DNA from: Opisthorchis felineus
Lineage: Eukaryota; Platyhelminthes; Trematoda; Opisthorchiida; Opisthorchiidae
Length of the DNA stretch: 64,000 nucleotides
NCBI GenBank assembly: GCA_004794785.1
Contig: SJOL01002263.1
Span: 850,363 to 914,362, forward strand
Direction of reading: 5' to 3'
Every line of letters begins with the position of its first letter. Positions within the stretch are counted from its first letter, which is position 1. A program made the translations under genes and the position numbers. The notes under the pieces are model-generated. The model did no database searches. It saw only the letters and a program-made list of their open reading frames with translations, and was not told where the DNA came from. This document shows positions 1,276 to 51,849 of the stretch, in pieces.

Positions 1276-1460
1276 CAGTATGTATATAACTTTTTATGGG
1301 TAGAGACTGCTCTCTTCTATTGGAAAGCAGTTCATGAACAAGCGTAGAGCCTTGGGTTATATGGATGTCTTTCGGCATCGTAGTAAAGTGAATATCAGCT
1401 GATACTGATAGGCGACACAACGCACTGCCGTCGACAAAATACATCTTATTCAGGTCCCAC
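1276..1460 (-). CDS. Probable fifth exon of the LLTP gene (helical domain)
   Basis: The acceptor 'aacctgcattag' gives an in-phase that accepts the two bases left by exon 3,334-3,565: aa+g makes Lys, followed by 'WDLNKMYFVDG'. The pattern 'YFVDGSALCR' loosely recalls the family's 'FLDALp..GT' helix start, and 'DIHITQGSTLVHELLSN' resembles the following helix pair. The frame is open as far as a TAG at 1,247-1,249. That TAG abuts a good donor (TATAG|GTAAAT), so the exon either ends earlier, for example at CTG|GTAGTC (1,276), or the block is not coding. Phase agreement is real; the sequence match is weak. Confidence 0.4.
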
Positions 1461-3896
1461 CTAATGCAGGTTAAAATAATTTCGGTAGATGTTGACATCA
1501 TTTTAGCTCAGTAACACAACGGATCAACTAGTTTTGCTGTCTTGTTTCAGAAGCAACAGGGAAGCACTCGATGGCTAAATTGGGTAACGGGTCACATGAA
1601 ATGCCTTACAAAACAAATCGTAACAAAGAATATTTGCTTTGTTGAGCCCAAATGAGGAAACCTTCAACTTCCTACCAATAATTTGGATCATGATGAGTTA
1701 CCTTAAGCAGCACCAGGACTTCGGCTGCTATGAATTGTAATAGTGTTTTTAGTTGTATAGCAAAACGTTTTTCAAGTGTGACATTGGGAGGTTTGAATTC
1801 TGTGGTTTCTAAAGTCGTGACTGCTGAAACTTACAGTTAACAATCCGAACAAGACCTCATCTTTTCTCAGTGTTTGATGTTTATAATTTCGACTCAAAAG
1901 CTCAATGTGGGGTACCCCAAATGAGGTTACCATCCTCTGCTTGGACAACCAGAAAGTGTCACTTTCCCTCACTGCTCTTTGTTCATCGATATCCCTCCCC
2001 GGGCCTTTCCAGCCCTCCGAGCAAGAGTAGCTGGATCATTTGCTTGTCACTTATGTGACCAATATGCCTTGTCAGTCACTTCATTTCGGTCCCAGTGCAA
2101 CTTCACCTCAGATGTTGTTTTCATCCTCATATTCCTTTATTTTTACATTCTTTACATTTTTTTCTTTACATTCTTTGCATTTAAAGTTAAGTGGAACGAT
2201 TCGAATTATAGACAGCGTTAAAAGGTCTGTTAGTGAACCTAAAAAAATCCTCAGAATCCTGAAACATATATTAAATATAATAAATAGATTAACGTATATT
2301 AACTTTTAACGCCACCGTACATAAAATAAAGTAATGATTAAACTTTTTCATAATGTTAATTCATGCAGACAAAGCACAGTTCAGACGAGAAATTTCTGAC
2401 TCCTGAATTGATTATTAATATATTTGGATCTTTTTCTTTTCACCTGGGTTTTTTTCTTCCAACCACTTGCTAGTTTCAACAGCTTTGCACCAAACAGTTT
2501 AATGTATTCGAAACAGCCGATCAACGAAATACTAATCACTAATTCTTATGACGGCATATTCTGTTTTCCCTACTTTTCAATATGTATGGGATTTTTGCCT
2601 CTACAGTTGAAAAAACGGGACATGGAAAAAAGCCAGTTAAAATTCCTATCCCCATCAAATGAAGTGTTATATGCTAAGCTTTAAATAGATGATAGCAAAA
2701 CCAGTAAAATAAATTAGCTGAAGCTTTTACCAGTCCAAAGTCCCGCGGTCACATTCGTTAATTCCGAGTTTGATTAATCTGACACAATACTCTTCTGCTA
2801 TTAACAGCTGCTAACTTTTCGTGATGGCTCTGATTCAGCTCAAAAAGTCAGCCTTCACTGAGAAGCAAAATGATACTGCATAGTTTTTCGAGAATATCAT
2901 TTACTCATCCATGAAAAGCACAGAGGAATAGCATTCTACCCGGTGTTGAACGGCCTGAGGGCGTTTTCTCGGATAGGCGGAAATAAACTGGGTCTACGGA
3001 TATCAAAATTTCACCCGGAGTTCCTTCGCGCACAAATTTCCTATAGTTACTTTCAAGTTCGGTCGTAAGCAGTTTTATTTATTATATTTACAGTGTGGGT
3101 TCTAAACTTTTCACTGCAAACCAGTAATCGGAAGTGCCCGAACTCAGCCTTTTCCGTCGGGCTCACTCCGTAACTGACTTGTTAGTTTATTTTCTTTAGT
3201 ATCCTACTTGACAGAATTCATCTTACCTTCACTAGTTGGTCATCTTGATTAAAAGTAGTTTTGGAGCGACTGGAATATCCAATTCAATGCATCAAACATA
3301 CAACAGTACGTTAAAAGGCAGAATTTAACTTACTTTATGTGAGTTGAGCTTAGTCGCGAAATTTTTCGGTTCAACTCTTCGAGTTGCTCCAATCCCATGG
3401 CTCGAATAATTTCGGTCAAATTGTAAAATCGTTTTGCCTGTTTAGTCACATCCAAATTATCCAGTTCAACAAATAATTCCACAAGTTCGTCAAATTTGAA
3501 CCGGTCATAGTTGATGCTGGTGACGGTAGGGTGCGTAAAAAACATTGAGGTTTCACGACTACCCTCTGCCAAAGGAAGATTTTACAGAGAAAAATGAGCT
3601 CAGGAACACACCTGATCAGTCAGTTTGCATAGTGTGTGTTTATATCGGTAATTAGTCCATGAGTTGCATTATGGTCAGTGACTGTGGCCTGTCTTTGTAA
3701 AAAGCTTCTTCCGGTATTTGGCTAGTACCTTCTCGCCTAGGTTAACTAAAAACTTTCAAACCACTAGAAACTGAAATACACAGACTGAATGACTACAAAG
3801 TTACAGTGTGGTCCAAGCGTACTTCAAAATTACATTGACTTCTTTGGCTTAGTGTAATCCTGAAAAGTTCACACTTCCGCATCCAGTGAAGACTCC

Positions 3897-3933
<37 letters not shown>

Positions 3934-6900
3934 GTCTCCAGACTAGGTGAACTAGGCCTATGGATACCAGCGAACAATGGGTACTGGCATATACAGCTTT
4001 CGCCAAGCCGAATATGCATCCATTTTCACGTCCTATATCCAGGATAAACCCCTGAGGAATGAGGTCAGAGAGTGACTGGCACAGAAGGAAGCGGCCTAGG
4101 AGTTGAACCCAATGGATAGACCGGGAGCATATTAACAAGAAGCTGACCCCAGAATGCATCCGCATGACGTTCTTTAGTTGGTCACGATTCAACTTAATTT
4201 CGTACATAATGATGGTAATTGAATGTCACTTTTAGCACCATTGCAGGCCTAGCACACAAAATTTATCAGTGTGCCAGGACATTTTCTTAGGCTTTGGTTC
4301 GTACTACTGTTCACTTTTATCAATTTTAATTTATCCGACGACGTTTTGTCGACGAATTGCTGTGTGCAAGCTGGTGGCCGACCAATCCAATGCGATTGTC
4401 TCAGACATGATCGCAGTCGCTGTAGAGACACCTTGTTCGGAAAGAAAATTTAAAAGCCCCGATGATGCCATTGTGTTTTGCACGCCTCAACCCTTGCTCG
4501 ATGTTGGTACTCGTTGAACTGATGAAAACCAGTTCGCAACACTTCCATTCATGTCATCCTGTTGTGTGCACACGCTCCCCACTTTAACAGATTTACGTCA
4601 TCAGCCTTTAGAATTCCTGTTCACCCATCAAGCAAGGGCTCCGTTTCGTAGTATTCAGCTGACCATGAAGGAGCTGCTTCGGAATCCAATGCCAATGCAT
4701 ATGGCAAAGACGGCCATCGCACACGCCCGAATGTGATCGTGTCCTCCACTCCATCACGGCGCATCGGTCGGGGTATCTCCCTATCCGACGCTCGGTCGAG
4801 TGAACACCAAGTATCCCTTTCAGGTAACCCACGTGAAGGCTGCTCAGTTATCGAAGATTGTGCCGATACTTAGTCGGTGCTTTAATGTCGTACAAAAGGA
4901 TGAATAGAACAATCACCCTGTGAACGTGCGACTTGGTTTTCAACGCAAGTTTCCGTTCCTCCACGTTCTTCTCTCAAGTTTACCGAAACCTACACCGAAT
5001 CTCAGCCCACAGTTGACGGACTAGTCGGCAGAAAATATGCTTTCGCAGCAGCAGAAGTCCGCAAGGGAGCATGCAAATTCTGTCCCAATCTTGATTCGCG
5101 GAATGTTCAGGACCTCAGCTTGGGTTGTTTGATGTATATTGAAGGTCTTGTTTGCGCCGACCCTCAAGAGAACTGCAAGGCAGCAGTTGAGATCTCCCCA
5201 GACAGAAGCCGCAGTTTAGCATGCTAGTGTATAAACAATACCTGGTGACATGTAAACTCGAGTGTGCGGATATTTAGCTGGTGAACCAGACTCTGCACCA
5301 AAACGTCTTTCAGTGAACACACGTCCATCAGACTGGTATTCAAATTATATACCAGCACTCTCATCCAAGAACGCCGCATATAAGATGGCTGCTGAAGACT
5401 GAATAGGGCGGGGACACATGTGCACCCCCTTTCAAACCACTGAGGATTCAAAAGCCATTAAAACTGACCCTATCGACTGCATCTTTACTCTCATTCCGTC
5501 ATACTATGTTTGGAGGAGTTTGGCGATATTTGGCTGAGCGCCGTTTTTAGAGACAACTGTTCACGACACTTTTGTCGACGGATTCGAAAGCCTTCAACGA
5601 GCCTCTGAGGATGTTCGAAGGATTTTTCTCAAAGCTGTCATGAAGAAAATATCAGGTCCGTTGTGCTACGGTCAGCGCGGATTAAACATTCTTCTTTGGG
5701 TGTGCTTCGATTACTTCAACTGTTAGGCGGTTGAGTAAAACTTGTGTAGTTGCCCGGACTGACACGAATAAAGCATCTTTGAGTTTGATGGAAGTTCCTG
5801 TTCCTGCCAGATCATGTTTGTCAGTTGAAGAAATGTATCCTCCATAGTCGGGTCACCTTATCTAAACACTTCTGCTGCAGACATACTTTCTCTAGCTGTC
5901 TTGCCATTTCTAAATTACATTTTCGCCCGCCACATCTCTTCAATAGTCGGGAGAAAGTCCAGGGCCAGTTCCAACTCTCGTTGAGGAAGTCCGTCCACAG
6001 CAGTCCTTTCGAGGCTGGTCGGTTGATTCAGCAGTTTGTTCAAGCACTTGTGTCATACACCCAGTATTCTGCAGGTGATGTTCGCTTCAATCACGTCTCA
6101 GCATCCTGGAAAGTTGGAGTCCGTAGGTAATTTTCAAGAAATCGTAAAACTTTTTTGTGCCGTCACTGAGCAGCTTAAACTTTGGGATGCTAACTTTGCT
6201 ATCTCTAACTTCAGCTTCTAATACGGCTGATATACCGAGACAGATCATTTCGATCACCATTTAGCCGACGTTTCTAGAGCTCAATATCCGGATGAGCAGG
6301 TTATACGGCAGCTGCTCTGGTTTTCTAAGTACCAGATGCTTTGTATGATTGGTTTCACCGTCTTTTGCGTGTTCGCCCGATCTGGCCGACTGACGTCGTT
6401 ATCAGATTGGAGCTTCAAGTTGTGCCAGGCTGGGTGGACTGAAGACCACTTGTATCGTATTTTGCAGTTAAATGCTTTGTTGTCTGGTTGAGTAGATTTA
6501 ATCTGGTGGTATTAACAGAAAAACGCCTGTGTGATTTTTCATATCACGTTAGTATATTATCTTCATAGATTATTATAATTCATTTCATCTGTTTCTTGGA
6601 GAGTTCAATTTCCCACATTGAATTCTCAGCGTACGTACCTCGGTTTACCTTGGTTAAGTATAGTCACTCTCCGCTCGCTTAGGATGGCCAATAATTTTCA
6701 ATACGCAGATATCATTACGGAACCATATTCAAACTAAAGGAAAGAGATCTTTCACTCATTGCTAACTGATTCAGGAGTTGAATGTATCTGAGAATTTTCA
6801 ACGAGAGAAAAAGAAGAAATGTAGTAAGCATGCAAACTAGTGACTTGCATGGAATGAAATAAAAATTTTACAATGATTGTGAAGATTTTTAACGAAGGTG

Positions 6901-9900
6901 TGCTAAAGTTTTCTTTCTCGCATGTTAGTCCACAAACCTCTACGACAGCACCATTCAGTAGCTATCAGAACCTGCTTTCTCATTTCCATTGCAACTGATT
7001 TAGGGATGAGGTTTATCTAAATCTCGCCAACCCAAAAATTTTTAGTTTTCTTTTGGCACTTCTTGTAAATGTCTCGAACTAAGTCTTGAGACGATTGCAA
7101 TGGAAACTTAAGGCTCAGTAGCGATTCAGAAGTAGCCTGACCTTAGTCTGAGTTGGGGACGGTGGTGTTCTGCTTTATGCGTGAAACGAAGAGCGTTGTG
7201 CATCGGTCAGAACATACTGAAGGAATATCGCATCATTTTAGGATTTTTATCGAAGTTCTGCAGAATTCTTACGATCCAACTTTAAATTTGTATTAAAAGA
7301 TTCTCAAAGAACATGTCCAAACTTTTGATGTGATAGAATTCCGTCAGTCTGGAGCAATATTTCTGCACACTGAATATTTCTGATTAGCGTGAGCAAACTG
7401 CGAAATTTCAGCTTTATTATGAAACAACCTTGACAAAATCCATCAAATACAACTAGAACAATACATTGCACATTCGCCAATATATTTTGAAAACACTTTC
7501 AGTTTGTTTGATCTTACCTGTCTTGAAGATGTTTTTTTGTTCTGACTGAATTTTCCGAACAAGCCGGATTTCGGTGCTTGTTCTCACCACAACTGACTGC
7601 GAATTTTGCATCAGGCTGGAAGATGTTATGTTCAGCGCCTCATTGCAACTGGTTTGCAGTATTTCTTGAGTCGGTTTTAGTTGAATTTCGCATTGCATTG
7701 TACCCGTAACGTGCGGCAGTTTACTTGATTGCTTTGTATACAATAAAATAAAATGGGGGTTCAATTAAACGAGATCATTGCAAATATTTTAATTTTTGAA
7801 GCACAAGTGTCTCACCAATGAGATGATTGTAGATAAGCTTGTGATGCAATATTAAAAAAAACATTTCTCCACATCCGTTTTGTGAAAAGTTTTCACTTAT
7901 ATGGTTGTGCTTCCGTTATTGTGTGACTGGAAATCTCGCGCAAAATCATACTGCAAAATGCATCACACATCTAAATCATACATATTGTTTCATGCTATAG
8001 TTACATTCATCACCATCGTTGCAAGTGCACTTGTTTTGGAAAACAAAATAAATTTTCAACGGATACTCAAAATGGTGCCATGGAAAGTTTTGCCCATCAT
8101 TCAAAGACGCCTTCGTTTCAACTCGTGGTGCTTCCTAAAAAGTTTTATCAGAAGCGTAGAAATGGACTATTTTAAGGGGGTATGTCAGCAAGGTAAGCCA
8201 AGGCGCGGTCCGATGCCTTGACAGACGAACAATATTGAAAATAGTCGGGCAAATATGAATACACGGCGGTCTGATATTCCTGTTTGCAGCAAGACCCAGA
8301 AATATGCCCGACGCTCAGTCTAATTACGTCACCCAACGGACAGCAGGTGCACACCACACACACCGCATTAGAGAAAGTTATGTGAATGGGAATGCAGGCC
8401 TCAGTTGAACCGGTTTGCCGGTTACCTAGTTGACTAGTCACAATGATCGGCTGATTCGGCGGGGGCGCTTTTCGTTACAGTTCGGTGAGTGATTACACAA
8501 CTGCACCAATGAACGTAGTACTCTACATTCGAGGCTGCCAATACTATCCAGTGGTCAATACATAATTATTGTATTTATGGGACTAACTCGAACTATACTA
8601 CAAAATGGAAATGGCCCAGCGATAACGTATGAGGACCGTTATAAATGATGACAGAAACAAGTAAAAATGCAACAACTCACCGTAGGTTCATCAATTTCGT
8701 AGTTTGTCAAAGGTGACCGGAATACATATTTGTCAGTGCAACCGGTAGTATACTTTGTTTTCATGATGGTCACGTTCGTCGTTCCTTGTTTGACAGGGTG
8801 AAACTCCGTGATACATCGTCCAGAGATATCATTCTAGAATGCATGTGGAGTGGAGAAAAACTATTAGTTTGTATGAAGAAGCGTCCTGTAAAAAGTAATG
8901 AGTGTTGCACTGAAGATGAAACTGAACTCAGGATATTGGTTGTGATGACTTACTTCTATTTGACGGACGAAGTTGTCTAAAGGTTTTTTAAGCACTCAGC
9001 TCAAAAACCAAAAATTCTAACCAGAAACCTATTTGTTGAGATAGAGCTGATAGACGACAATTTTTAGAATTGCCGGCCGTAAGGCCCGAGCCTCAGTTTG
9101 AAACGTTTTAACATACTGAGTAAAGCAGGCCTCTTATCCTGAGAAAATAACTTCCTTTACACCTACCATAAGCTACTCAACACTGCTATGTCCCTGAAAC
9201 TGTTTAGCATGTTGCAACGTCGGCAGTACGGATATGTATTTTTGGGATGACTAATTTCAATGTTTGACTTTAGGTCTGCCGCGTTGTTGAGCCAGATAGC
9301 TTGCACTTTTAAGTTGCGGGAATTGAAGTGAGCCAAAACGTAACCATCTATGTCTCAGTCAACCGGCCCAGCTCTAACTACTGTGGTCCGTCTTGCCGTA
9401 TCACCCAGGCTACATCGGAGTTAGATACAAAAGTCAAGAGGCGGCAGCGAGCGTTGTTGAGCTTCCAAACGCTACATCATTTAATCAAAGAGTCTACATC
9501 ATGTGGTCACTGGCTGTACGTTGCTTCTCGGTCTTTCGGAGTAGATTGCCTGGATTAGATTACAAGACAAAATATCCCATCATAATCCTCAAAATCTCAT
9601 TATGCTAGCATATCTTCTGCATAGGTCTTCCCATACTCAAACCTACGACTTTGCTTTTCGAGGGGTCGGAGAGCAACAAGTGCTAGTCAGAAAATAGTTG
9701 AGGTTGACGTCAGTAATGTTATTGATGTCAAAAAATCAACTATAGGGTGTCGTATGAAGTAAACTTCGTATTGCATTTGTTGATGATAGGAATCAACTAT
9801 GCTATGTTTGGTATCACAAAACATATTTTGTCTGGTGAAGCATCACGTTTCATGTACATATATCACGGCCAGATACATTAAGTGAAACGTGTTTGACGTA

Positions 9901-12900
9901 CTTTCTTACTCAATCAGCCTTATGGAGCCATCCAAGTTAGCCCTAAATGAGATTGTTCTGAGAGACACTGATGTATACAAGGTTACGGCTCACAGTAAGT
10001 ACAAACCTATTGGATGAACATGCTGATGAGAATTTTGATACGGTCTTGGAAAATATGAGTCTTTACTCTCGGTCACGATCAGATGCTTTAGAGTAACCTG
10101 TGACAAACGTTTTGTCTGACGTCAAGGCAAGTTACGTAAAAGTCACCAAGGAACTAAGCCAATTTGCAAGGCTAAAAAAAGAAGAGTATCATTTTCTGAA
10201 AGTCACAACAGAAACATAAGACATCATAGGCCAGAAGCGTTTTCCATCTTTGAGTTTCCGGAAGATTTTGTCCTATTTATCAGGGTAAACTTTAAGTAGT
10301 GTCAATTCCGGCTTTTGATCAGGTGGCAGTTAATCTTTTCACCGAGCTTGCAAACATTTTGTCGCCAAACGGGGCGACACCTTCTGATATGGTGACAATT
10401 CAGTCGAAAGCTAACAGTACTCATCCACTACGAGTGATCGATTTCGAGATGGGCGTGATCTTGTGCAATCCCAAAGAAGCGCACTGTGTTTGGATTTGAT
10501 AAGCTTAGAGATACTCGGGCCTGCTGCTATCCATTATACAGCCAATGATGTCATTTTCCAAAGTAAATCCTTGGCTTAGCGAAAAATCGTTATACTGCTA
10601 AAATTTGAACATTTGTTCAAGTACTCTACGGTACTGTATCTCTGAACCGGGAGAGGTAGCTTGCCAAAAGTCAGGCATGTTTATGGAATTCATGAAACAA
10701 TATTTATGCTATCAGTCGCTCGGGTGAGAAATAACACCGCGATTGGGGTCATTCAGAGAACAACATCCCCTTCAGAGGGGAAAAAGTTGAAACCAAGCCA
10801 TTGTTTCCGAAAGGTCCCCAAAATGGATTCACAGCTAAGCAAAATGTTGGTTTCACGAAAGTAGCTTCGTCATTCCAAAAGCGGCTACTAGGTTGGACAT
10901 GCCCTAAGGCAGACGGATAACTAATCGGGAAAATCTCTTTAGACAGCCCCGCTAGACCAGCATTGATTGTCGGCTAAAAGGTCTCATCAGTTAGCCGGAG
11001 TGTCCAACTTTTATAGTCGATGGGTTGAAGGATTCACATTTAATTTGGTCAGGTTTGGATCTTTGATCCTCCGGTTAAGACTGTTTCAGTTGATGATTCC
11101 TCTTTGGCGTGATTTGCAAATCTTCTTGGACTGCGTGAGTTCTTTATTCTTACGACAACTAATACATAATTCAGACCCAACCCACGTCTTTTTATGCTTC
11201 CTCTCCAGTGATAACTGAACACCACCACGTATCAGTTCAACTGATCTGGAACCACTTTCTGCATCCCCACCAGTTCTGCGCCTTCTATCCTAGTTGCACA
11301 GGGGCGTCCGGCAATTTCCATGGTCTCGGCCGTCGGACCGGTTGACATACTTGTGAAGTTCCACATAAACTCGTTATGTACGCCAGAGCTTTGTGTCCGC
11401 TTCACGTGCATGCTACAGCTGGTAACACTGGACGATCCCGAAGCGTTGCAAACATCTATTTGACTGAAAATAATCGTGCGTTTCTGGCACGGCTTCCCAC
11501 TGTTATTGCGCCAGGAACTAAAAAACCACCTTTTGTGTGTTTGTGATTCGGATGCACGAAAGAAGGAACAGTTGTAAAAGTCACTGGTCAGATGTGCTTA
11601 GTTTTTCAAATTTGGCTTTGGACTAGACTCTCCTATAATTACTTTTTCTGTGCATAAATTCGATGATAACCTACCAGACCCAAACTGAGTTGGGGCAGTT
11701 ATTTTCACAGACAGAATTTTTGGCGGCCGTTGCCGACGGCGCTGTGGACAGATTCAAATCCGATCCAGTCAGTATATGATCTCAGTACAGACCGCCCAAG
11801 CCCATAACTAGAGGTTCTACTAGCGATCCCCACAGACTGGCTTATGAGCAGTTTAGAAAGAACATGCATTTCGTCGTCTCGAGACCAGGTAAAGGAAAAT
11901 GTGGGGAAAAGTGATGAAAGAATGAAACATAACGACAAACTGGAATAACCCTATGTTACAACACTAGGCCATAGTTACAGCTGGAAGAGAGGGAAAGTAC
12001 AGCAGAAAGGCATCTGACAGATTTCAGGAGAGTAAGAAGAGGTATCATAACAGGAGAGATTGAATTCAACTATTTCGCGCACCTCGCACGTTACGTACCA
12101 GAGAGAAAAGTATACGGATCAAATACTGAACTACAACAGTACTCATCCAGTAAACCACAAGGGGAGTTGCCTCCAAACTCTGTTTAAGAGGGCGAAGACA
12201 AACTGCAGCACCACAGAATTACAGAAGAAGGATGAAAACTACCTACTGAGAGTGTTCCAGAACAATGGATACCCAAAGAATTTTATCAAGAGAAGCCGGA
12301 AGAATAAGTCATCCCAACAAAAACAACAGCAAGGAAAAGTGACCAGGCGGGTAGCTCTACCTTACGTCGAGAATATATATGAACTCACAACCAGATTAGC
12401 TTAAAAAGGGATCCTCGTAACTCACAAACCGAGTGCCACTTTAGGGAAACTGATCTGACGACCGAAGGTCAAATAATAAAAAAACAAAAACAGTATAAAA
12501 ATGGGGTATGCCAATTTAACTGCAGCAATTGCACTGAAAACTACTTTGGATAAGATGGGAGGAAATTGTGCACATGAATAAAGGATCAAAATGCGGCGGT
12601 CAGGAGGCATGGCCTCCTACTCATGATATCCATATACGAAGACAAAAAAAGGCCACAAATTCAATCTGGAAAACGCAAAAGTTTTGGCGCACTGAGACAC
12701 GGAAGTTAATTTTTGGACTCAGAGTACTTCACGGCGGATTCGATCAACCCATGCAATTTACGCACCACTACGTGCAAAGGACCAACATCTCAACCGGAAT
12801 ACTCAAGAAGAGCCGAATATGGGATTCGCAAACCAAGAGACAAGCAACTCCTTGGAGTCGGATCAACAAGTCACAAGCCCTAACCTAGAGGGGCCAAGGA

Positions 12901-15900
12901 CTGCGGTCACTCCACCGTTGTCTAGAGTACGAGAGCAGGAGAGGCCAACATCAAAGGTCACGTGGTCATCGATCAATCAGGACATAGGATAACAGAGCAA
13001 CCAATGGAACGGTCCGACCGAAAAACTAATCATGATCGGAGGTCATCCCAGGCTGGCAGCACGGATATTAACACACACGCAACACTACGCAACGCACAAC
13101 CATCGACCCATGGCAACGCTCCACTAGGCCCCTTAACAAAGCACTGATGACGTCACCTCGATTGGTGATGGAACGTTTGCAATCAGACTGTCCAGCTCAG
13201 AGAACAAACCAGCCACCATCTACGCTATCTGAGCTACCAAAATTCCCTTCTATGGAGAAAGGTATATCAGTCGAACAATCAGGCAGTTATCCAAACAAAT
13301 TTCCGAATACATTCCACTAGGTTTTCATCAAGGGCAAAAACGTGCCAATAACAGCCTAATTCTAGCCCACCTACGAGGAAGAGGACATTGTCACGGCCTA
13401 TAAATTTGTCCATGAAGTCCGATCAAGGTTGTTGGGCTCAACTCGGACCAGAATTTTAGCCACCACCGTAGCCATTGGTTTACGTATTTACAAGCCCCGA
13501 ATTTGCATTCAGAGACGCCCTCTACAAACAGCTACAATCACGAGGCAAGAAAATAACGCCTGAATTGTAAGGTCAATTCAATTACCGTGTTATTACGGAC
13601 GAACACTTCGAAACTTTAGTATTGGTCTTTAACTTGACAGCTACCAGTTGAGTTTCCCGATTTATCTGTTCAATATGTATGTCTGACCTAGCCGAAGAGA
13701 TATCGAAAGGGTTAACTTAGCTCAAACTCTAACGATCTTAATACACGAGTGTATCGGAGGGGGGCTGTGTATACAAAGCCAACCATAGTTATTGGCAAAC
13801 ATAACCAGCATAATACTCAGATTTTGATGGATTAGACAGGTTGATGGAGCTAAGTCACTCACTCTCACAAGTGTAATATCACTGGAATTTGCCCAGTTAT
13901 TCGTTTAGTTCAGTGCATTTTGCCATTGAATTGGTGTTTGATCACGTCGCCGTTGATCTTTTCGCACAGTTTAGCAGTTAGCTTGTAAACGCTTCGTCAC
14001 CGATCGAGGTGGCATCATCAGTGCGCGAATGATGAATGGATAAGACGTGTGCTAGAATGGTGTCGAAAGGTCTACAAACTAACTACGCAGGTCGGCAAAC
14101 AGATCAACAGTCATCTGATTGACCAATGAAAGCCCCAGGACTACCGTTATTGCAGTGCATTGCCCCGTGATTATAGAGGTACATGCGCTGGAATTTTCAC
14201 AAACTTATTTTATTCATGCAGTCGTCGGTTATTTTTATTCATAAATCGTGTAGTGAGGTTCAGCTGGAAACTTCTCATACTTGGCATTTTCTGTTCCAAA
14301 AACTGATATCATTTCTGCCGAAGAAATTGGAACGTCCTCCCAGGCACCCTTGCTGTACTTTTACCAACAATAGATTAAGACAAATCTAATGTGAACTTTC
14401 AACAAATGAGTGTTCACAGCTTCCTGATGGCCAACTGTTTTCCTCATTGATAATTCCCGAAACCAAAAATAGGGCAGTCACGGTCATATCCACTGAAAGA
14501 CTGGTGAGATTATTGCTGACAGTGATTCCCAGTAAATATCATAATTGTGATTTTTTTTGCTGAGCACTACCCTGTGATGAATCATCTCTGCACAAATGAC
14601 TAAAGTTATGACGTTCTCTTATCTATGGCAGTCAAGTATCAGTAAGTACAGCCGGCGCTTCTGCATTTATCAACTAATTTTCTCTTGTTTAATTCTTTAA
14701 TGGTTTCAAGCTTCGCGTGTTAGACGTAGTTTTGGAATAGCGTTTCCAAATACGTGTATCACGAATGACAGGACACTTCTAGAGACGCGTAGTAACGGCT
14801 GCCTTCCCACTTACTGGGCGGATGTTCTACCGACAAAGCTTCCAGTGACCCTCTCTCTCTGCAATCAGATTTCACGACGGATTCGTCACACCTTTGCCTA
14901 ATGGTGACTGGCACTCATCAGCGCCATTAGTGGGCCTCCGGGCCATCAAGGGCCAGACGCTGACACCATTCAGATGCACAGTTTCGATGTAAACATACAT
15001 GAGCAACTGATGGGTCTTGAAATGAGAAATTGAATGATGCGTAGCATATCCGTCTCCCATGAGAGTCTTCTCTTTTATCCTACGTGTACTTAGATTTCGC
15101 ACCCCAAGGCTCAATCGTCTTCTGCTTGTTGAGAATAATCACAATTTAACATTTCATGAAAATCTTGTTTCGACCGACTGGGAGTGCGTGAACGTTCACG
15201 GCCTCACCTCAACCGATGGTCAGCACTAAAATTACGTCTGATACTTGGTTCATACCAAGTGATGTTGATTCTAAGTGATGTTGTCTGGGAATTTCCCCTT
15301 AGGATAAATAATCAACGCGGAAGTGGATGATAATCGTATTTTACAGCATTTACGGAAACTCACCTCGATGGTGTAAGTGGGAAGCTCCAGGCTGTCAATC
15401 GATAGTTGCAAATGTGACAAGATAGCACGTTTCAAATTCGAAAGCTGTGTGCTGTCCTCATCATGCATCCAAACCTTTTGTATCCGTCCATTATCGTAGC
15501 AAAACTGCACGGCTTTGTCGCTAGCGTAGTCTAATGGTGAAGCATACTGGACGTCTTCGCCTTCGTAACTGACTTGTGATTTTTCACGCACCTCCATGAG
15601 CTGCGTGGTCAGTAAACCAATGATATATGAGTGCACATGCAAAACCAGAGGAAGAAAAAAGACCCGGTTGATATCGTGGGAAATCATTTTAACCAAAAAC
15701 CACATTCTAAGGTGTGCAGTGTACGAGGATAGGTAGAGGGAAACTGGTCCAAATCAACCTGCATGGAATTTTGTGTGAGGTTAGTCCGTCTTTCAGACTA
15801 TGTCTAGTATATTTTTGATCGTATCCTTCATTCATTTACCTCCAACTATCTTCATTTTTGCAAACAGTAAATGAATCTACTTGAGGATATGGCTGATATC

Positions 15901-16751
15901 TTTTTTTTGGCAGGCTTTTTAGGTGCTCTGAACTGTTTCGTTTCTGCAGGCTTTTGGACAACTCATACTCAATCTATCCGTACTGAATGGCATGAATAAC
16001 ATCCGAAAATCCGGTTGGAGAACCTAATTAAACCTTGGATGCAAACCAAATCTGTAAAGCTCCCCTAAAGCTTGACCAGTTTCTGGAACGTATCCTCCCA
16101 CCCTTGGTGCAGTAATCGGTCTAGCATGTTTGTGCTGCCTTGTTTTCAATTAAAATAAGGTTATCTTATAAAATTACTACAGAAAATAACATGCTATTTA
16201 TAACTGCCACCGGAATCAACATTTCATTCAAACCCAGTTTCCAAAATTCATTTGTTGGTACAGAAATGTCAAATTTTGAGTGGTGCAAGCTGTTCGCATT
16301 ACAGCTAAAATTATTTCTTATGAAACACAATAGTCCCGGTCCAATTCATGAAGTTTGATTTGTCAAAATCAGTTTATCGAAATTTCATTTCAACTATTTA
16401 CAGTTCACTGCTTTACATTTCACTGACGTCATTTGTCGAGCTTCCAATTTATCCGTGACCACAGTGGAAAGAAATTACACTTTCAGAATACAAACTTTTT
16501 TCATTCTCCATCAGTTTTCTTAGTAACGTCACTACTAAAAATTGGGCAAATAACAGGGTAACTAATCATCTCTACTTATTGAAACAATTCCGATGTATAG
16601 ACAATATGCCATGAATATCAGCACAGTCTGTCGATAGTGGAGAGAGACCGTTGAAAGAAATCACAGCAGAATAAACACAAAATTCAAAGCGCAAGTAAGC
16701 CATTCTGGTAACACCATTGGAGACAAGATTCAATTGCAGCAAATACAGCAT
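1276..16751 (-). CDS. Large lipid transfer protein (vitellogenin/apolipophorin/MTP superfamily), N-terminal part, multi-exon
   Basis: LLTPs bind lipid in an N-terminal 'lipid transport' module (beta-barrel, then helical superhelix) and load lipoproteins or yolk in the secretory pathway. Minus-strand blocks join through GT..AG introns with matching phases: 16,576-16,751 (out 2) to 15,364-15,706 (in 2, out 0) to 7,518-7,731 (in 0, out 1) to 3,334-3,565 (in 1, out 2) to about 1,276-1,460 (in 2). The joined protein, roughly 380 residues, follows the family order: an early beta strand ('MAYLRFEF'), a Cys-bounded strand pair, the 'NLKRAILSHLQL' block (family N(I/L)KRG(I/L).S.LQ), a 'HVTGTMQCEIQ' block (family D(V/I).G.C...Y), then the start of the helical part ('FYNLTEIIRAMGLEQLEEL'). 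Intron sizes are 869, 7,632, 3,952 and about 1,873 bp. The signal-peptide exon and everything 3' of the fifth block are missing. The subfamily cannot be fixed from this much. Confidence 0.72.
1461..3333 (-). other. LLTP intron 4 (probable)
   Basis: Starts GTAAGT at 3,333 and ends at the CATTAG acceptor at 1,461 if the fifth exon is real. It contains an imperfect repeat of CTTTACATT-like units near 2,140-2,185 and AT-rich sequence at 2,250-2,420. No gene was seen in it. Confidence 0.45.
3334..3565 (-). CDS. LLTP exon 4: start of the helical domain
   Basis: 232 bp. A strong acceptor (pyrimidine tract then 'tttggcag' ending at 3,566) and a consensus donor (AAA|GTAAGT at 3,333) bound a fully open block. 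Its first two bases complete a codon with the single G carried from exon 7,518-7,731 (Glu). The product includes 'RFKFDELVELFVELDNLDV' and 'AKRFYNLTEIIRAMGLEQL'. These match the pattern of the LLTP helical-domain start, where a short linker is followed by helices of the form L..L..L...(A/S)..F..L...+R.L..E.L..L. I see no membrane segment or unusual composition. It is the third of four well-supported splice junctions. Read alone it would be unrecognisable; the assignment depends on its position between the matching exons. Confidence 0.7.
3566..7517 (-). other. LLTP intron 3, with a pure TA repeat
   Basis: GTAAGA at 7,517 to TTGGCAG at 3,566. A pure (TA)n run lies at about 3,897-3,929. Small open frames at 4,249-4,517 and 5,825-6,221 overlap each other on both strands and have no splice or domain support. 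Confidence 0.6.
3897..3929. repeat. (TA)n microsatellite in LLTP intron
   Basis: Pure alternating TA run of about 33 bp. Confidence 0.95.
7518..7731 (-). CDS. LLTP exon 3: Cys-containing beta region of the lipid transport module
   Basis: 214 bp. The acceptor is 'tattgtatacaaag' (ends 7,732) and the donor is ACAG|GTAAGA (7,517), in-phase 0 and out-phase 1. The protein begins 'QSSKLPHVTGTMQCEIQLKP' and includes 'EILQTSCNEALNI' and 'VVVRTSTEIRLVRKI'. In ApoB, MTP and vitellogenins the stretch after the KRG block reads as a D(V/I).G.C...Y strand, then a lysine-rich strand and a second Cys; this exon gives H-V-T-G-T-M-Q-C-E-I, then C-N-E-A. The following alternating Val/Thr/Arg strands fit the rest of the barrel. 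The open frame around it is 103 codons, but the splice sites trim both ends. Confidence 0.72.
10312..10395 (-). mobile_element. PLE 3' tail fragment
   Basis: Reads 'gatcaggtggcagttaatct' through 'gtcgccaaacggggcgac', an aged copy of the repeated tail. The reverse complement corresponds to the PLE C-terminal coding end seen at 13,141-13,222. Weaker similarity continues toward 10,700, where 'gtcaggcatgtttatggaat' resembles 39,920-39,960. Confidence 0.6.
11960..13240 (+). mobile_element. PLE remnant with linker, degraded GIY-YIG and 3' tail
   Basis: The open frame 12,060-12,404 has the PLE linker signature: 'NSTHPVNHKGSCLQTLFKRA', 'FQNNGYPKNFIKRS' and 'RRVALPYVENIYELTTRL'. After frameshifts, 'THKPSATLGKL' (about 12,420-12,455), 'CSNCTENYFG' (about 12,520-12,550) and 'SIYEDKK' (about 12,625-12,650) mark the GIY-YIG nuclease start and core. 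The copy ends with the tail 'gatgacgtcacctcgattgg' at 13,145 onward. This remnant identifies the short repeats elsewhere in the window as PLE tails. The RT domain is absent, so the copy is 5'-truncated and inactive. Confidence 0.8.
13930..14036 (-). mobile_element. PLE 3' tail fragment
   Basis: 'gatcacgtcgccgttgatct' through 'gtcaccgatcgaggtggcat' and 'catcagtgcgcg' is the tail in minus orientation. It lies about 60 bp from a shorter copy in the opposite orientation. Confidence 0.65.
14094..14135 (+). mobile_element. Short PLE tail fragment, opposite orientation
   Basis: 'gcaaacagatcaacagtcat' followed by 'ctgattgaccaatgaa' matches the last 40 or so bases of the tail (compare the reverse complement of 41,413-41,452). 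With 13,930-14,036 it makes an inverted pair. Confidence 0.5.
15364..15706 (-). CDS. LLTP exon 2: lipid transport module with the N-L-K-R block
   Basis: 343 bp. The acceptor is 'cactgcacaccttag' (ends 15,707) with a pyrimidine-rich tract; the donor is CGAG|GTGAGT (15,363). The first base completes AAA (Lys) with the AA carried from exon 16,576-16,751, and the exon ends in phase 0. The product starts 'MWFLVKMISHDINRV', corresponding to the family's Cys-bounded strand (ApoB pattern C.FILK.S), and continues through 'AVQFCYDNGRIQKV' to 'STQLSNLKRAILSHLQL'. The last block is the most recognisable LLTP signature here. A second possible acceptor (CAG|CTCATG at 15,601) would shorten the exon by 106 bp and break the phase with the upstream exon, so I prefer 15,706. 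Confidence 0.78.
15707..16575 (-). other. LLTP intron 1 of the visible set
   Basis: GTAGAG at 16,575 (a weak donor) to CCTTAG at 15,707, 869 bp. An ORF at 16,140-16,358 on the plus strand has no support. No repeat was recognised. Confidence 0.5.
16576..16751 (-). CDS. LLTP exon 1 of the visible set: first beta strands
   Basis: 176 bp if the acceptor is 'gtgctaattcag' (ends 16,752). The donor AATAA|GTAGAG is weak, but the in-frame TAG two bases later forces a splice there or earlier. The product includes 'NGVTRMAYLRFEFCVYSAV', 'GLSPLSTDCADIHGI' and 'LSIHRNCFNK'. LLTPs begin their mature part with a strand of the form G..Y.Y.(Y/F)E, then a Gly-Leu/Val-Pro turn, then C.(I/V).(I/L).(I/V)...C; this exon gives the same order and spacing. 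The out-phase of 2 fits exon 15,364-15,706 exactly. The 5' limit is uncertain: an alternative acceptor CCAG|AATGGC would start it at about 16,701. The block contains an ATG (16,751) but is too short to carry its own signal peptide. Confidence 0.65.
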
Positions 16752-23655: not shown

Positions 23656-25925
23656 AGAATGTACTTCCCACTGAAAATTTCCAGATCTCTTTACGCCATC
23701 AGCGAAGATAGATGTCTTCAAGTAGCTGACTATCACACACAGGCATGTCACCCGCGGCCACAAACACTTGCATTCAAAGTTTTACCGAATATTGACTTTG
23801 TGTTTACTCATTGCATAGATCTAGTTTATTACCTCCTCTTCGTCCAAACTGGACCCGACACCTCACGGCTTTGTAGAAATCTACGTCTCATGTAGGTATC
23901 CCGTGAATAACGTGTTCATACTACCGTTCATTCTAGGATTAGTTCATTACCATAATCGAATAAGAGAGCAATAGTTTTCGGTAATGCAACAGTCACTCTG
24001 CCGTACGCAAAGACCTAGTGCCCATGAATGTGATAAAATGTCAGACTCAGGTAGTGATACAGATAGCCTCCCATTCTACTGATGTGCGATTTTACCTACC
24101 TGCTGAAATCTGAAAGGGCTCATGTGCAGACACCCATTTGAAGAATATGGTAAATTTGGTATTTATCTGGGATTCAGTTGAGTTGCCTGCTAACAGTAAT
24201 TGAATTTTCAAATCATTTGACTTTGCCATTGGCGTAGAATTTTGGGTTCAAGTGGAACAAGCTGTTGACGGCTTCTCTGGCACTGCAACTACATGATTGC
24301 CACGAATAAGGATGACACCGGTCGTAAGTTATTAAAACGTTTTCGGAAAATTACTTGCAGTTAGCTCCAAAATGAAAGGAGAAAGCTATAGAATAAGCCT
24401 TTGTCAATTAACCTTTAAAAATCTACTGTTGGATCTAAAGCTTCCCCTCTGTTTAAAAGCGGCCAGTTTTTTGTGGATTTCAGGTAAGAAGTGATGAGAA
24501 AACAAAGGTTAACCCGCAAATGTGAAGAGGTTTTCTGTAAGAGGTTGGGTTACTGTAACAAACTAGTTTTACCCCCTTTCGTATTCATGGATATAGATTT
24601 GTGCCTCATGCGGAATATAGTGGAATGCAATTACCCACAAGTACTGTATTGCTGAGACTTGTATGGAATGCCTTGGAAATAAAGTTTACCAGATTTAGCC
24701 TATGTATATTGCCATGTGAAACCAACGTAGACGTAAAACGATTTACCACCCACAACAAAAGATAAACGCTGTTTGCCTTAACAATAGTTACCGTCTAGAG
24801 CCTCGCCCTGCCGAACGTAATGAAATTAAAACAGTGCGACAAAATCCGAAAAAAATTCAGACACTTTTAACTGCGAGACTGGTCTTTTTCCCTCCGACCA
24901 AATCTGGTTAGTAGCTTAAAAACTTTTTAGAGGATTTCGCCCACTTGGTGTAACGGGAACAAGACTATAAACAACCTTCATAGGTGGTTGATTTAAACGA
25001 CAACAAAGAGCTTTGGTTTTTCATTACGTTTGCCATCCGAAAGAAATAAAAATCTCAGCTTGTTACAAGAGAGGAATGCTACTCATAATCGTGCTCTTGT
25101 TTTAACGGTACCGTACAACAGACCGCATACTAATGAGCATACAAATCACATTTGCCTTTTCAGTCAGTTTGGCTTTGTGTGCAACACCAACTTTCGTTGA
25201 TTTTCTCACAACACATGCCCAACGATTTTTATATCTTAGAAAGCTTAAGAACCAAACGACTTTATAAAGCTCTCTTTACTAATGGTTCGCAAGCAAACAA
25301 CCGCGAAAATAAAAACTGCACTTACCAGAGCAATGTTGCGCGCACGGCGTTTCACTGGTTGCGACTGTCCTTTGAACTGAAAAAAAGATAACTGATGATT
25401 TAATCCAGTACGAAAGAGTTGTCTGTCATGTATATCAATTAGTGCCGTTTTCTGACAAGCGGATCACGCGTTCAATTTGAAATATATGCTAACTAGGCAG
25501 GCTTCATTTTAGGTAAACCATAGAATCCAGTGCCCTTACTACATTGGTTTCGACGATCAGATGTGTGCTTTATCCAAAGCCGAAGTTCCTCTTGGAATAC
25601 AAGCACGGGTTTTAGGCCTTTAGGATCCCGTCATTATCAGTTCTGGATTAGTTTTATAGGAGTCTGAGAACTGTGATAAAAGCCGCATTTTAAACATCGA
25701 TGAGTCAGACCTGCACAAACTCTTCCTCAAACTTCCAAAGAAACGATGGCTCCAATAGATATTAGCTTTATCTGGTGAATGATATGAATAGCTTTAGTAA
25801 AATCTTAAGTTAACTCTACTTTGGTCGAGAAGCCATTCAGTACTCTTTTAGCAACACATGCGTGATGTGTTTTCCATCGCCACTTGTTCTCTATTAAGGA
25901 GAACAATCTGATTTATTGTTGTTCA
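23656..25925. other. No gene recognised
   Basis: No splice-bounded or domain-like coding block. Small frames only. Confidence 0.4.
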
Positions 25926-29371: not shown

Positions 29372-30731
29372 CTATTCTTGCTGTCCTTTGGATAAGAATA
29401 TATATCTGACACCTGGCGTTGTTTCCTCAACCACCGCCCAGAACAAAAACCAGGAAGTTGCGTTGCGTTTCAACGGTGGCAGCCAAGTAACGAAGCATTG
29501 ATCGAGATTTTGTTTTCTGAGTAAAGGTGGTTTATAAGGAAAGGCCAAGAAGTACTGTACAACTGTTCCACTCCCGGTGGGAATCTTCAGTAGTGCGCTA
29601 ACCACGAATTTCTGGAGAGACTGAGACCCGCTACCTCCTGGACAATAGTAGAAGACTAAATAAAAAATGAACAAGTGTTGAGTACACTTCCTAGAAGAAT
29701 GAAAAATGTCACTTTCAGGGTTGCTACAAAAGTAGTAGCTTCCGAGATGCCATTCCGGCCTAGTAAACTCTTTACGATCATTCCGTGGCCAAGACCTAGT
29801 CGCTGTAACCGTATTTCTTGTCCATGAATTCTATCTACCTCTGGTATAAAGCCGGGTAGTCTTTGAGTTTTATTGTAAACCTCGATGAATGCCAGGTCTG
29901 CTACACTGAAGAGTCCCGTTCAGATGCTTCTGCTGTCTGTCTGTTTCGGAATCCACACCGGTATGGATGAAATGGCCTAGTAATACGGAGGAAAACTTCC
30001 TACAGAAGATGATCCGGTGGGCCTGATGCAGTTGCTTGGAGGAGCATACATTCTAAGACCAACAAACGGGGGATAATTCCCCGCGCTTGTCCGGCTCTTT
30101 TTGTTGTTTTATACATGCTTCAACATGTTCACGTACTTCCACTTTTAGAATAACAACGCATCAAGACGTCTCAAACCCTTGACTGCACTGTTACAATGAG
30201 GGTTGCCTTCCTTTTGCCTTACTCTAGGCAAGTAATCGACCTTGAATCGGTGAGGAAAACTTATGTACAATCATTCTAGTGTTTGTGATTGCAAAGGTAA
30301 TACTCGAATTAGGTGATGTGAGGGCAAACGTGATCGATCAATTCATTGATCTATCAACCTTTTGCTCTGTCAGGAAATGAGGTTCACACATGGCAGTATG
30401 AGAACTGGACACTGGACATTCACAGGTGACTCGCAGTCCTCAGCGGCTCAGATTCTCATCCTCTTCAGTACTACTCTCATTTCCGGTGTTCTGTCAAAGG
30501 CCTCACTGGGTGTCGTTTTGCACCAAGTAGTATGTATAAATCCTAAGTGAACCGAACCACACTTGGGGGAAGATATCTAAGTGATGGCTTTACCGCGAAA
30601 TTATCCTCATAGTTTCGTTGGTTAATCAGTCCTCTCTGTCTATACAATCTAACGCAAACAACCGTAACAAACGTTCTGCAAAACTTACCAATCAGTGATA
30701 TGAACAGAAGTAAGCTCAATATTATCACCAT
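29372..30731 (-). CDS. Candidate two-exon small secreted protein, about 102 aa, function unknown
   Basis: Exon 1 (30,689-30,731) is an ATG followed by a textbook signal peptide, 'MVIILSLLLFISLI', then one G and a consensus donor (GATTG|GTAAGT). Exon 2 (29,372-29,637) follows a strong acceptor ('tcttctactattgtccag'); its first two bases complete a Gly codon with that G, and the frame stays open for 87 residues to TAG. Exon 2 contains 'SLQKFVVSALLKIPTGSG', 'VVQYFLAFPYKPP', one Cys, an N-glycosylation site (NAT) and strands of alternating hydrophobic residues. A second acceptor-like sequence ('tatgcttccctag') ends one base before the ATG, so spliced-leader addition or an upstream non-coding exon is possible. 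I recognise no family, and no AATAAA was seen downstream. Exon 2 could also splice onward at GCCAG|GTGTCA. The intron would be 1,051 bp. Confidence 0.4.
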
Positions 30732-32029
30732 CCTAGGGAAGCATAGTAAATTCGGCACGTGCTAACAGTATAAGCTCCTCACTGATTAGCTGCTAAGAGC
30801 TCGCTCTTGATCCGCAGACTGGTACATACGTGCTTCGGATGGTTCTTTGTAGTCGGAACGGGACTAGTCGAATGATACGGTAACTGCAAGTACCGTAATG
30901 TAAACTTAAACTTATGAAGGTCAATCGTCCCACATGTTAGTCTATTACCTAGGTGTGAAGCCTGGTTGGTGAATAGACAGGCACCAGCAGCATCTGGCAG
31001 TCTAAGAGAAGTTCGGTTATTTGTTTGTTAACAGTATAAGACGTCAAAATCTAGTCTAACATATACAATTCGCGGTATCTGAAGTTTTGTTCGATAGAAA
31101 CGTAAGCAGTGAGCCGCTTCGAATGTGTTTATACGTAGGTACCGATGGCATCCTTTGCGCCTAATTGAATTTTCAGAACAAGGGTAGAATAATATAAATG
31201 GGATGAATTTCATCGGCCTTAGTGTTCCAGTATGTGGTGCCCCTTCAGTGAAGATTCCTCCTGGGAATGGCCACTACGGAGGATGGTCGATCCTCGAGGT
31301 GATCGCACACAGTTTGTTGGCTGGTGGGTTATGCTATCGTGGACTATCCAGTCTCTCTTAGAGGGAGATTACTTTACCCGTTCGGATTGTTAGAAGCACA
31401 CTTTCCCATGGGGGTTTTGCTTGAATTTCGATCTTGCAAAGTAACCCCTAAAACGTCACAAATTAAGCCATTTTCGGTCAGATTGGTGCTCTGGTGTATG
31501 TTGGAACTGACTGGATGGGGCAACGTGTTACCAGTCAACCATATTGATGAACATTAATGCAATTGTAACTCGCTGAGTGATAATCCACATTTGGCATCCT
31601 CATATATTTGCAAATGCCTATTTGAAACATACCGTGGTGATCGCAGAATCTCTAGTAGATTGTTTTTTAAAAGTATCCTGTTTAATTAAGGTAATTTAAT
31701 ACAAGAAGTAATGGAGTAAGGCAAGATGTATGAACATGGGACACACAAAACCATGTGGAAAGTTTTGTAAAAACACGGTGCATGGCTCCTAAAAAGTCCC
31801 GTGAACGGATGCCTGTCGAAGAGCCGTTGATTCACTGCTTTGCCTTTCGACCCAGATTCCTCAGCATCTTTGCGCATCCAAATTATTCACGCAGGCCTAG
31901 TATCTCCATCGTTTAATACCGGTGCATGGCGAATATAAATGTGCTATTGGTATAGGACAGAAATAGGCTTTAGAAACCTTAACTTTGAACACAAAGGCAT
32001 GCAATTTAGACTAAAAGACAGAGTTCTTG

Positions 32030-37740: not shown

Positions 37741-37777
<37 letters not shown>
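37741..37777. repeat. (TA)n microsatellite
   Basis: Pure alternating TA run of about 37 bp with no interruption. Confidence 0.95.
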
Positions 37778-45554: not shown

Positions 45555-45762
45555 NNNNNNNNNNNNNNNNNNNNNNNNNNNNNNNNNNNNNNNNNNNNNN
45601 NNNNNNNNNNNNNNNNNNNNNNNNNNNNNNNNNNNNNNNNNNNNNNNNNNNNNNNNNNNNNNNNNNNNNNNNNNNNNNNNNNNNNNNNNNNNNNNNNNNN
45701 NNNNNNNNNNNNNNNNNNNNNNNNNNNNNNNNNNNNNNNNNNNNNNNNNNNNNNNNNNNNNN
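45555..45762. other. Assembly gap, 208 N
   Basis: Undetermined bases immediately after a C10 homopolymer (45,545-45,554). Open frames reported across the N run are not real. LINE sequence resumes right after it. Confidence 0.99.
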
Positions 45763-50391: not shown

Positions 50392-51642
50392 TCACAACTG
50401 CTTGCCGAATACATTGTCAAGGACGATACTTTGGTTGTAAATAAATGCACCCAAAGCAACGCTAGCAGTCATCGTAAGGAGAACATGTCGCCTCATAAAC
50501 CAGAAAAATATCCCAAAAGCAAACAAAGATGCTAGATATTTCCCGAACTCCTTCGTATAGGCTACTGTCCATATTATTCTGGACGGCTTATGTGACGCGT
50601 CCAATGTCGTTGGACTTTTACGGGACTTACCACTCTGTTTTGCTGTACATCGACCATCATGTCTTTCGAGGTGTGCGTAACACTCGCACACGTATGATCC
50701 GGGGGTGTTCCTACAAGTTTCACCATCGCCCTGGCATGGGGATGGTTTTCGTGAACATTCATCAACGTCCTCACACTTCCCATCGACCAAATGGTAACCT
50801 TGGCGGCATCTGGTACAATCATGCGCCGAGGGCCCGTGGCAACCATCGCATGAAACTGAGCAACGATGACACTCGTAGGATCCCGCAGTATTCAAGCAGT
50901 ATTCTGTCGAACGCTCACAGGGGTCGTGTTGACATTCATCCACGTCTTTGCAGACAGCGGGAGACTCTTCTTCAACCCACGTCCATCCTGCAGCGCAACC
51001 CGTACAATCAGATGGGTTAGGGCCTCGACAACCCCCCAGACAGGATGCGTGGCAGTTCAGGCAGGCACCAGCATCTCCATTTTCGGAAGGAAGGCTGTAG
51101 TGTGTTTCGGAATTGCATTTATTGCAAGCTTCGCCTACATAACCCTCACGACATATGCACTTCCCGGAGCCACCTCGAGTCCCGTTGCCATCGCACGAAC
51201 CACCCTGGACGACACAAGGAGCGCAAACATTGCAAGTTGGTCCAAAGTGGCCGACAGGACAACAATACTTGGCCTCCGTGAGACAAAGATAGTCACCGAA
51301 CTCGAGTATTTTGCTTTGATTAATCTTGAACACATCATTCCACCAATCGCTGATGAGCGGTTCCAACAAGCCAAGAATTTCATGACACTTGCTATCAGAC
51401 TTCACGCAAACGCCGGCGATAATATCATCAAACCTTATTTCACTTGTAGCGTAGCTGCCAATATTTTTCTGTTCCCAATGCGTGTTTCCACCACTGAAGC
51501 CTTTCGTAGCCGTACGGTTCAGTCCAGCGGAAAAAGCACTCACAATCTTCTGGCATTGTTCACAATCATCGCATGCAGACAGTCTGAGGTTACTGAATAA
51601 AATGGTTATCGAGTAGAGGTAAAACAAGGTCAAACCGACCAT
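50392..51642 (-). CDS. CRELD: CRELD-type protein: cysteine-rich with EGF-like domains, two C-terminal membrane segments
   Basis: 416 aa from the ATG at 51,642; the open frame reaches 51,699 but only through a GTG. Residues 1-23 are a signal peptide ('VGLTLFYLYSITILF'). The mature part begins CDDCEQC, the CxxC start of the CRELD N-terminal (DUF3456-like/WE) region, with an NRT glycosylation site near 42. A laminin/furin-like Cys-rich part follows (about 125-230). Calcium-binding EGF modules start at DVDEC near 233 and again near 292. Hydrophobic segments at about 368-382 and 387-401 fit the paired membrane anchor of CRELD1. The order and length match the family (about 350-450 aa), whose members work in the ER and at membranes. 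The CDS is one uninterrupted exon, unlike the multi-exon vertebrate genes. An acceptor-like 'ttctgccatgtgcag' lies about 100 bp upstream. The long plus-strand frames here are antisense shadows. Confidence 0.93.
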   Translation of the reverse strand: MVGLTLFYLYSITILFSNLRLSACDDCEQCQKIVSAFSAGLNRTATKGFSGGNTHWEQKNIGSYATSEIRFDDIIAGVCVKSDSKCHEILGLLEPLISDWWNDVFKINQSKILEFGDYLCLTEAKYCCPVGHFGPTCNVCAPCVVQGGSCDGNGTRGGSGKCICREGYVGEACNKCNSETHYSLPSENGDAGACLNCHASCLGGCRGPNPSDCTGCAAGWTWVEEESPAVCKDVDECQHDPCERSTEYCLNTAGSYECHRCSVSCDGCHGPSAHDCTRCRQGYHLVDGKCEDVDECSRKPSPCQGDGETCRNTPGSYVCECYAHLERHDGRCTAKQSGKSRKSPTTLDASHKPSRIIWTVAYTKEFGKYLASLFAFGIFFWFMRRHVLLTMTASVALGAFIYNQSIVLDNVFGKQL

Positions 51643-51849
51643 TCGCCTCTTCAGTGCGCTAATGGCAGAGCGCAAAATCAACCACACGCCTAACCACACG
51701 TGTATGGTCCAAGGTCAGTTCGATGGTTCAGAGGTGGCCTGCACATGGCAGAACAAGACACGTTCAAAGAATAGGGGGCCGAGCTAAATACAGCAGCCAG
51801 TTTGCTACGCGGCAGACAGCAAAGGACCATTGTGCAGAAACAAGAGCGA

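What the first reader, a model, noticed from the sequence alone, without database searches (positions are those of the whole stretch)
1276..16751. A lipid transfer protein gene hidden in five small exons on the minus strand
None of the blocks stands out alone, but four have good splice signals and every junction phase agrees (2, 0, 1, 2). The joined order matches the LLTP lipid transport module: first barrel strand, Cys-bounded strands, N-L-K-R block, V-T-G-x-x-C block, helical start. An ORF-only reading would miss it.
Basis: partly seen in the sequence, partly recalled or inferred. Interest (0 to 1): 0.75.

Follow-up and report, generated by a model that had tools for sequence, protein, structure and literature searches.

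The report
Liver fluke apoB-like lipid carrier gene

Summary
The gene is real. The window is Opisthorchis felineus DNA: seven minus-strand exons between 30731 and 3334, with GT-AG introns, translate exactly to residues 1-363 of the deposited protein CRM22_001205 (P0003, 3591 aa). Exon 16751-16576 and the 5' end at 15706 are not in the protein; an in-frame 153-nt exon (8833-8681) was skipped; three upstream exons were missed. The whole protein has Vitellogenin_N and Vit_open_b-sht domains, then about 2700 residues; it has no strongly serine-rich stretch. Six of the eight cysteines in residues 1-363 fall in register with apoB cysteines 12, 61, 159, 185, 218 and 234. Best reading: the fluke's apoB/apolipophorin-like lipoprotein scaffold, comparable to planarian apob-1/-2. 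Subfamily placement is supported, not proven: without P0005 the only credible solved match is lipovitellin. A new member of a known kind, of modest interest.

The parts
30689..30731 (-). Exon 1 (43 nt): start codon and hydrophobic, signal-peptide-like N terminus (P0003 residues 1-14; phase 1 after it, donor GTAAGTTT)
   Evidence: tblastn and the single splice solution; no signal-peptide predictor was run
25326..25376 (-). Exon 2 (51 nt, phase 1/1): end of the signal region, C26 and C30
20438..20598 (-). Exon 3 (161 nt): N-terminal part of the lipid transport module, C80
15364..15600 (-).
   Evidence: the partial O. viverrini protein P0002 begins at this same residue
8681..8833 (-).
   Evidence: 45 of 51 residues identical to the C. 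sinensis segment; part of P0003
7518..7731 (-). Exon 6 (214 nt): V-T-G block with C229 and C244
3334..3565 (-). Exon 7 (232 nt, phase 2 after it): start of the helical domain; no further exon found in the window
16576..16751 (-).
   Evidence: peptides absent from P0001-P0005, no Pfam match

Best explanation
This is the 5' part (seven exons, six introns of 949-6530 nt) of the Opisthorchis felineus gene for a secreted, about 3600-residue large lipid transfer protein of the apolipoprotein B/apolipophorin-like type. Shown: exon structure, exact identity with the predicted protein, LLTP domains, cysteine register. Inferred: the N-terminal signal sends it into the secretory pathway; the module takes up phospholipid and neutral lipid in the ER, probably with MTP help; the long C-terminal part wraps the growing lipid particle; the particle is secreted to move lipid taken up from the host between gut, parenchyma and yolk-producing cells, as planarian apob-1/-2 move lipid out of the intestine.
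For: P0003 (O. felineus CRM22_001205) is 100% identical over the 278-aa query. One GT-AG solution gives residues 1-363 exactly (ends of exons 4-7 were fixed beforehand, those of exons 1-3 enumerated). The C. sinensis protein P0004 is 87% identical. Vitellogenin_N 166.3 bits and Vit_open_b-sht 36.9 bits in P0003. A profile of P0003+P0004+P0005 matches human apoB-100 (9bd1) best: 81.2 bits, E 1.4e-22, over 23-680; lipovitellin is second at 64.5 bits; no other chain at E up to 10. Cysteines 30, 80, 171, 196, 229 and 244 align to apoB mature cysteines 12, 61, 159, 185, 218 and 234; lipovitellin has Y and H at the last two. That these apoB cysteines pair as 12-61, 159-185 and 218-234 is recalled. 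Planarian apob-1 has Vitellogenin, DUF1943 and VWD domains, and both planarian genes are enriched in intestinal phagocytes and mediate transport of neutral lipid (PMC9249923: passages found, with part of the abstract, and section 6).
Against: P0003 alone and P0003+P0004 as a profile find only lipovitellin as a credible solved match (42.4 and 49.3 bits; the other six hits are T4 endonuclease V chains at E about 1). P0005 alone finds no apoB either, and lipovitellin only at E 0.58. ApoB appears only when the three are combined. Two of the eight fluke cysteines (C26, C119) have no apoB partner, and apoB 51 and 70 have no fluke partner. VWD is not detected and C8 stays below its cutoff. DUF1081, recalled as common in apoB/apolipophorin, is not found. 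No furin-type R-x-K/R-R site in P0003 or P0004. No expression, secretion or lipid-binding data here. AlphaFold models of a related fragment, P0001, were useless (mean pLDDT 34.2 and 34.6).
Confidence: 0.8

Rival explanations
1. It is a vitellogenin: a yolk precursor taken up by egg-forming cells.
For: For P0003 alone and for the two flukes together lipovitellin is the only credible solved match; the Pfam family is named for vitellogenin.
Against: 3591 and 3736 aa instead of the recalled 1600-1900; no serine-rich phosvitin-like stretch (at most 10 Ser in 60 residues of P0003, 11 in P0004); C229/C244 match apoB and not lipovitellin; flatworm egg nutrition comes from vitelline cells (recalled).
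Confidence: 0.12
2. [quoted passage not shown]
For: MTP shares the Vitellogenin_N module (recalled).
Against: The protein is about four times MTP length (MTP about 900 aa, recalled); no chain named MTP is among the PDB matches at E up to 10 (that the PDB holds MTP is recalled).
Confidence: 0.02
3. The reader's four-block model is a genuine alternative transcript with another 5' end and exon 5 skipped.
For: The frame stays open and the skipped exon is 153 nt with phase 0/0. The C. sinensis model P0001 starts at the corresponding ATG inside the intron; 20 of 29 residues there are identical.
Against: P0003 and P0004 (contig of 168.7 Mb) use the upstream exons. P0001 carries exon 5 and reads into the intron after exon 6, so it looks like a prediction error. 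Peptides of the 16751-16576 block are in none of P0001-P0005.
Confidence: 0.04
4. The gene is a decayed copy that is not expressed.
For: None found; expression itself was not tested.
Against: The seven exons translate without a stop to the deposited protein; the two species keep 87% identity over about 3600 residues.
Confidence: 0.02

Closest known systems
Clonorchis sinensis CSKR_203002 (P0004)
   Same: Same length class (3736 aa), same Pfam families, 87% identity
   Different: 145 residues longer at the C terminus; its Vit_open_b-sht match covers only residues 626-696
Planarian apob-1 and apob-2 (PMC9249923)
   Same: Flatworm LLTPs; the paper reports Vitellogenin, DUF1943 and VWD domains for apob-1. 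That DUF1943 is the older name of Vit_open_b-sht is recalled
   Different: Their sequences were not compared here; VWD is not detected in the fluke proteins
Human apolipoprotein B-100 (9bd1)
   Same: Module aligns over profile positions 23-680; six cysteines in register
   Different: 4563 aa; hit only when P0005 is in the profile; two cysteines on each side unmatched in the aligned stretch
Lipovitellin/vitellogenin (1lsh)
   Same: Aligns over P0003 residues 115-687 at 42.4 bits; shares C171 and C196
   Different: Shorter protein (recalled); Y and H in place of C229 and C244

Membership tests
Large lipid transfer protein superfamily | Vitellogenin_N (PF01347) module above the curated cutoff | tested here: met
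   166.3 bits against a cutoff of 24, P0003 72-587; 74.0 bits for four window exons
Large lipid transfer protein superfamily | Open beta-sheet domain PF09172 after the module | tested here: met
   36.9 bits against 23.7, P0003 626-879; 30.8 bits in P0004, residues 626-696 only
ApoB/apolipophorin-like | Protein well over 3000 aa with a long part after the module (recalled) | tested here: met
   3591 and 3736 aa
ApoB/apolipophorin-like | N-terminal cysteine register of apoB (12-61, 159-185, 218-234; pairing recalled) | tested here: met
   These six positions align; apoB 51 and 70 and fluke C26 and C119 have no partner. The alignment comes from a profile that includes P0005
ApoB/apolipophorin-like | Closer in sequence to apoB than to vitellogenin | tested here: inconclusive
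   ApoB first with the P0003-5 profile; lipovitellin only with P0003 or P0003+P0004; P0005 alone finds neither well
ApoB/apolipophorin-like (invertebrate type) | C-terminal VWD domain | tested here: inconclusive
   No VWD family reported up to E 10; C8 below its cutoff, at best 14.2 bits against 23.7
ApoB/apolipophorin-like | DUF1081 (recalled as common, not as universal) | tested here: not met
   No match up to E 10 in P0003, P0004 or P0005; the scan's filters drop most matches above E 0.1
Vitellogenin | Serine-rich phosvitin region (recalled as absent from some vitellogenins) | tested here: not met
   At most 10 Ser in any 60 residues of P0003, 11 in P0004
MTP large subunit | About 900 aa (recalled), ending after the lipid-binding module | tested here: not met
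   3591 aa; no chain named MTP among PDB hits
ApoB/apolipophorin-like | Secreted lipoprotein carrying lipid | not testable with these tools
   No expression or biochemical data

The most novel reading that the evidence does not exclude
Opisthorchiid liver flukes, living in lipid-rich bile, keep their own apoB-type lipoprotein export system (without a recognisable VWD domain and without a furin-type site) to distribute host-derived lipid, and other parasitic flatworm lineages may have lost or strongly altered it. The comparison with schistosomes and tapeworms was not made here.
Probability: 0.15. Interest if true: 0.5.

Novelty: new member of a known kind. Interest (0 to 1): 0.25.

Why it matters
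It assigns a likely role to a deposited 'hypothetical protein' of a human liver fluke: an apoB-like lipoprotein scaffold for moving lipid inside the worm. It also shows that reading frame, splice sites and phase can all agree in a gene model that still skips a real phase-0 exon. Beyond that it is an ordinary animal gene of a well-known superfamily.

Tried and rejected
Rejected: the 16751-16576 block as exon 1, the 15706 acceptor, and a fifth exon near 1276. AlphaFold of P0001 alone and with a 5-row alignment gave mean pLDDT 34.2 and 34.6, so no fold search was made. The second protein search (query padded to 1183 aa) had 1210 candidates, none at E 0.01 or better; the first found 2 of 246, the third 3 of 831. 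A failed search of that kind is no evidence of absence in schistosomes or tapeworms: only relatives sharing exact 5-residue words are candidates.

Literature: ten searches in a library that lacks most subscription papers. In the listings (capped) I saw no title on an apoB-like protein in opisthorchiids. The O. felineus genome paper (PMC6530080, passages found) has no occurrence of lipoprotein, vitellogenin, lipid transport or apolipo in its main text. A helminth vesicle paper found by 'apolipophorin' (PMC10744797, one passage) lists apolipophorin and vitellogenin under Nematoda. The other listed papers were not opened, except PMC9249923.

Full report
Observation. The four stated blocks exist, and their join is open with the stated phases. 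That hit, residues 86-173, lies wholly in the 15706-15364 block, so it did not test the other blocks or the junctions. The same join finds no solved structure at E up to 10.

Identification. A search with blocks 2-4 found two short fluke proteins among 246 candidates, C. sinensis CLF_107566 (P0001, 305 aa) and a partial O. viverrini protein (P0002, 255 aa). tblastn found them in the window at 8833-8681, 45 of 51 identical to the C. sinensis segment, between AG and GT. A search scaled to large proteins returned 3 of 831 candidates: O. felineus CRM22_001205 (P0003, 3591 aa, 100% identical over the 278-residue query), C. sinensis CSKR_203002 (P0004, 3736 aa) and P0005 (3509 aa, no organism named). 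The window is therefore taken to be O. felineus (lineage).

Gene structure. P0003 mapped back to the window gives seven minus-strand exons: 30731-30689, 25376-25326, 20598-20438, 15600-15364, 8833-8681, 7731-7518 and 3565-3334. With exons 4-7 fixed, enumeration of splice sites for the first three exons gave one solution that translates exactly to residues 1-363. Phases after the exons are 1, 1, 0, 0, 0, 1, 2; introns are 5312, 4727, 4837, 6530, 949 and 3952 nt. The genome paper gives a mean intron length of 3546 bp and a mean gene length of 25,615 bp (PMC6530080, passages found), so this layout is normal for the species. Residues 364 onward were not found in the window.

Exon 5 is 153 nt with phase 0 on both sides, so skipping it leaves the frame intact; the frame check could not see it. 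The C. sinensis model P0001 uses the corresponding in-frame intronic start, and the O. viverrini fragment P0002 begins just at the true acceptor.

What it is. P0003 has Vitellogenin_N (166.3 bits, 72-587) and Vit_open_b-sht (36.9 bits, 626-879), then about 2700 residues with only a sub-threshold C8 match near the C terminus. P0004 has the same families, its open-sheet match being partial. The length speaks against MTP and is far above vitellogenin (typical lengths recalled). Of eight cysteines in residues 1-363, six (30, 80, 171, 196, 229, 244) align to apoB mature positions 12, 61, 159, 185, 218 and 234; C26 and C119, and apoB 51 and 70, have no partner. Lipovitellin shares 171/196 and not 229/244, and its match does not reach the first two. 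The six are invariant in P0003, P0004 and P0005. The PDB comparison is mixed: apoB first with all three in the profile (81.2 against 64.5 bits), lipovitellin as the only credible match without P0005, and neither convincingly with P0005 alone. I therefore call it an apoB/apolipophorin-like member of the LLTP superfamily, with exact orthology open.

Mechanism. By analogy with planarian apob-1/-2, which are enriched in intestinal phagocytes and mediate transport of neutral lipid to other tissues (PMC9249923: passages found, with part of the abstract, and section 6), the most likely role is a secreted lipoprotein scaffold. Lipid loading, particle formation and secretion are inferred; nothing here tests them.

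Verdict. A real and ordinary gene, already deposited as a hypothetical protein.

Noticed in passing
window 50392-51714, minus strand: A 440-aa open frame with two calcium-binding EGF stretches (EGF_CA 37 bits), resembling CRELD proteins (name recalled); it lies upstream on the same strand.
   Followed up: partly
window 52064-52675, minus strand: A 203-aa open frame that looks like the end of a non-LTR reverse transcriptase (recalled resemblance; no Pfam match at E up to 0.01).
   Followed up: partly
window 30732-30750, minus strand: The start codon is preceded by TTCCCTAGG, so an AG lies one base upstream of the ATG; it could be a spliced-leader trans-splice site or the end of a 5' UTR intron.
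   Followed up: no
window 7371-7107, minus strand (intron 6): The tails of the C. sinensis and O. viverrini models P0001 and P0002 match this intron in different frames, so those deposited models seem to read into the intron.
   Followed up: partly
P0003 C terminus against P0004: The O. felineus model ends 145 residues before the C. sinensis one, both sharing LYLCEE at residues 3586-3591 of P0003, so its 3' end may be incomplete.
   Followed up: no
window 3897-3929 and 37744-37777: AT dinucleotide microsatellites, 17 copies each.
   Followed up: no
window 45555-45762: One run of 208 unknown bases makes several spurious open frames of X in the ORF list.
   Followed up: no
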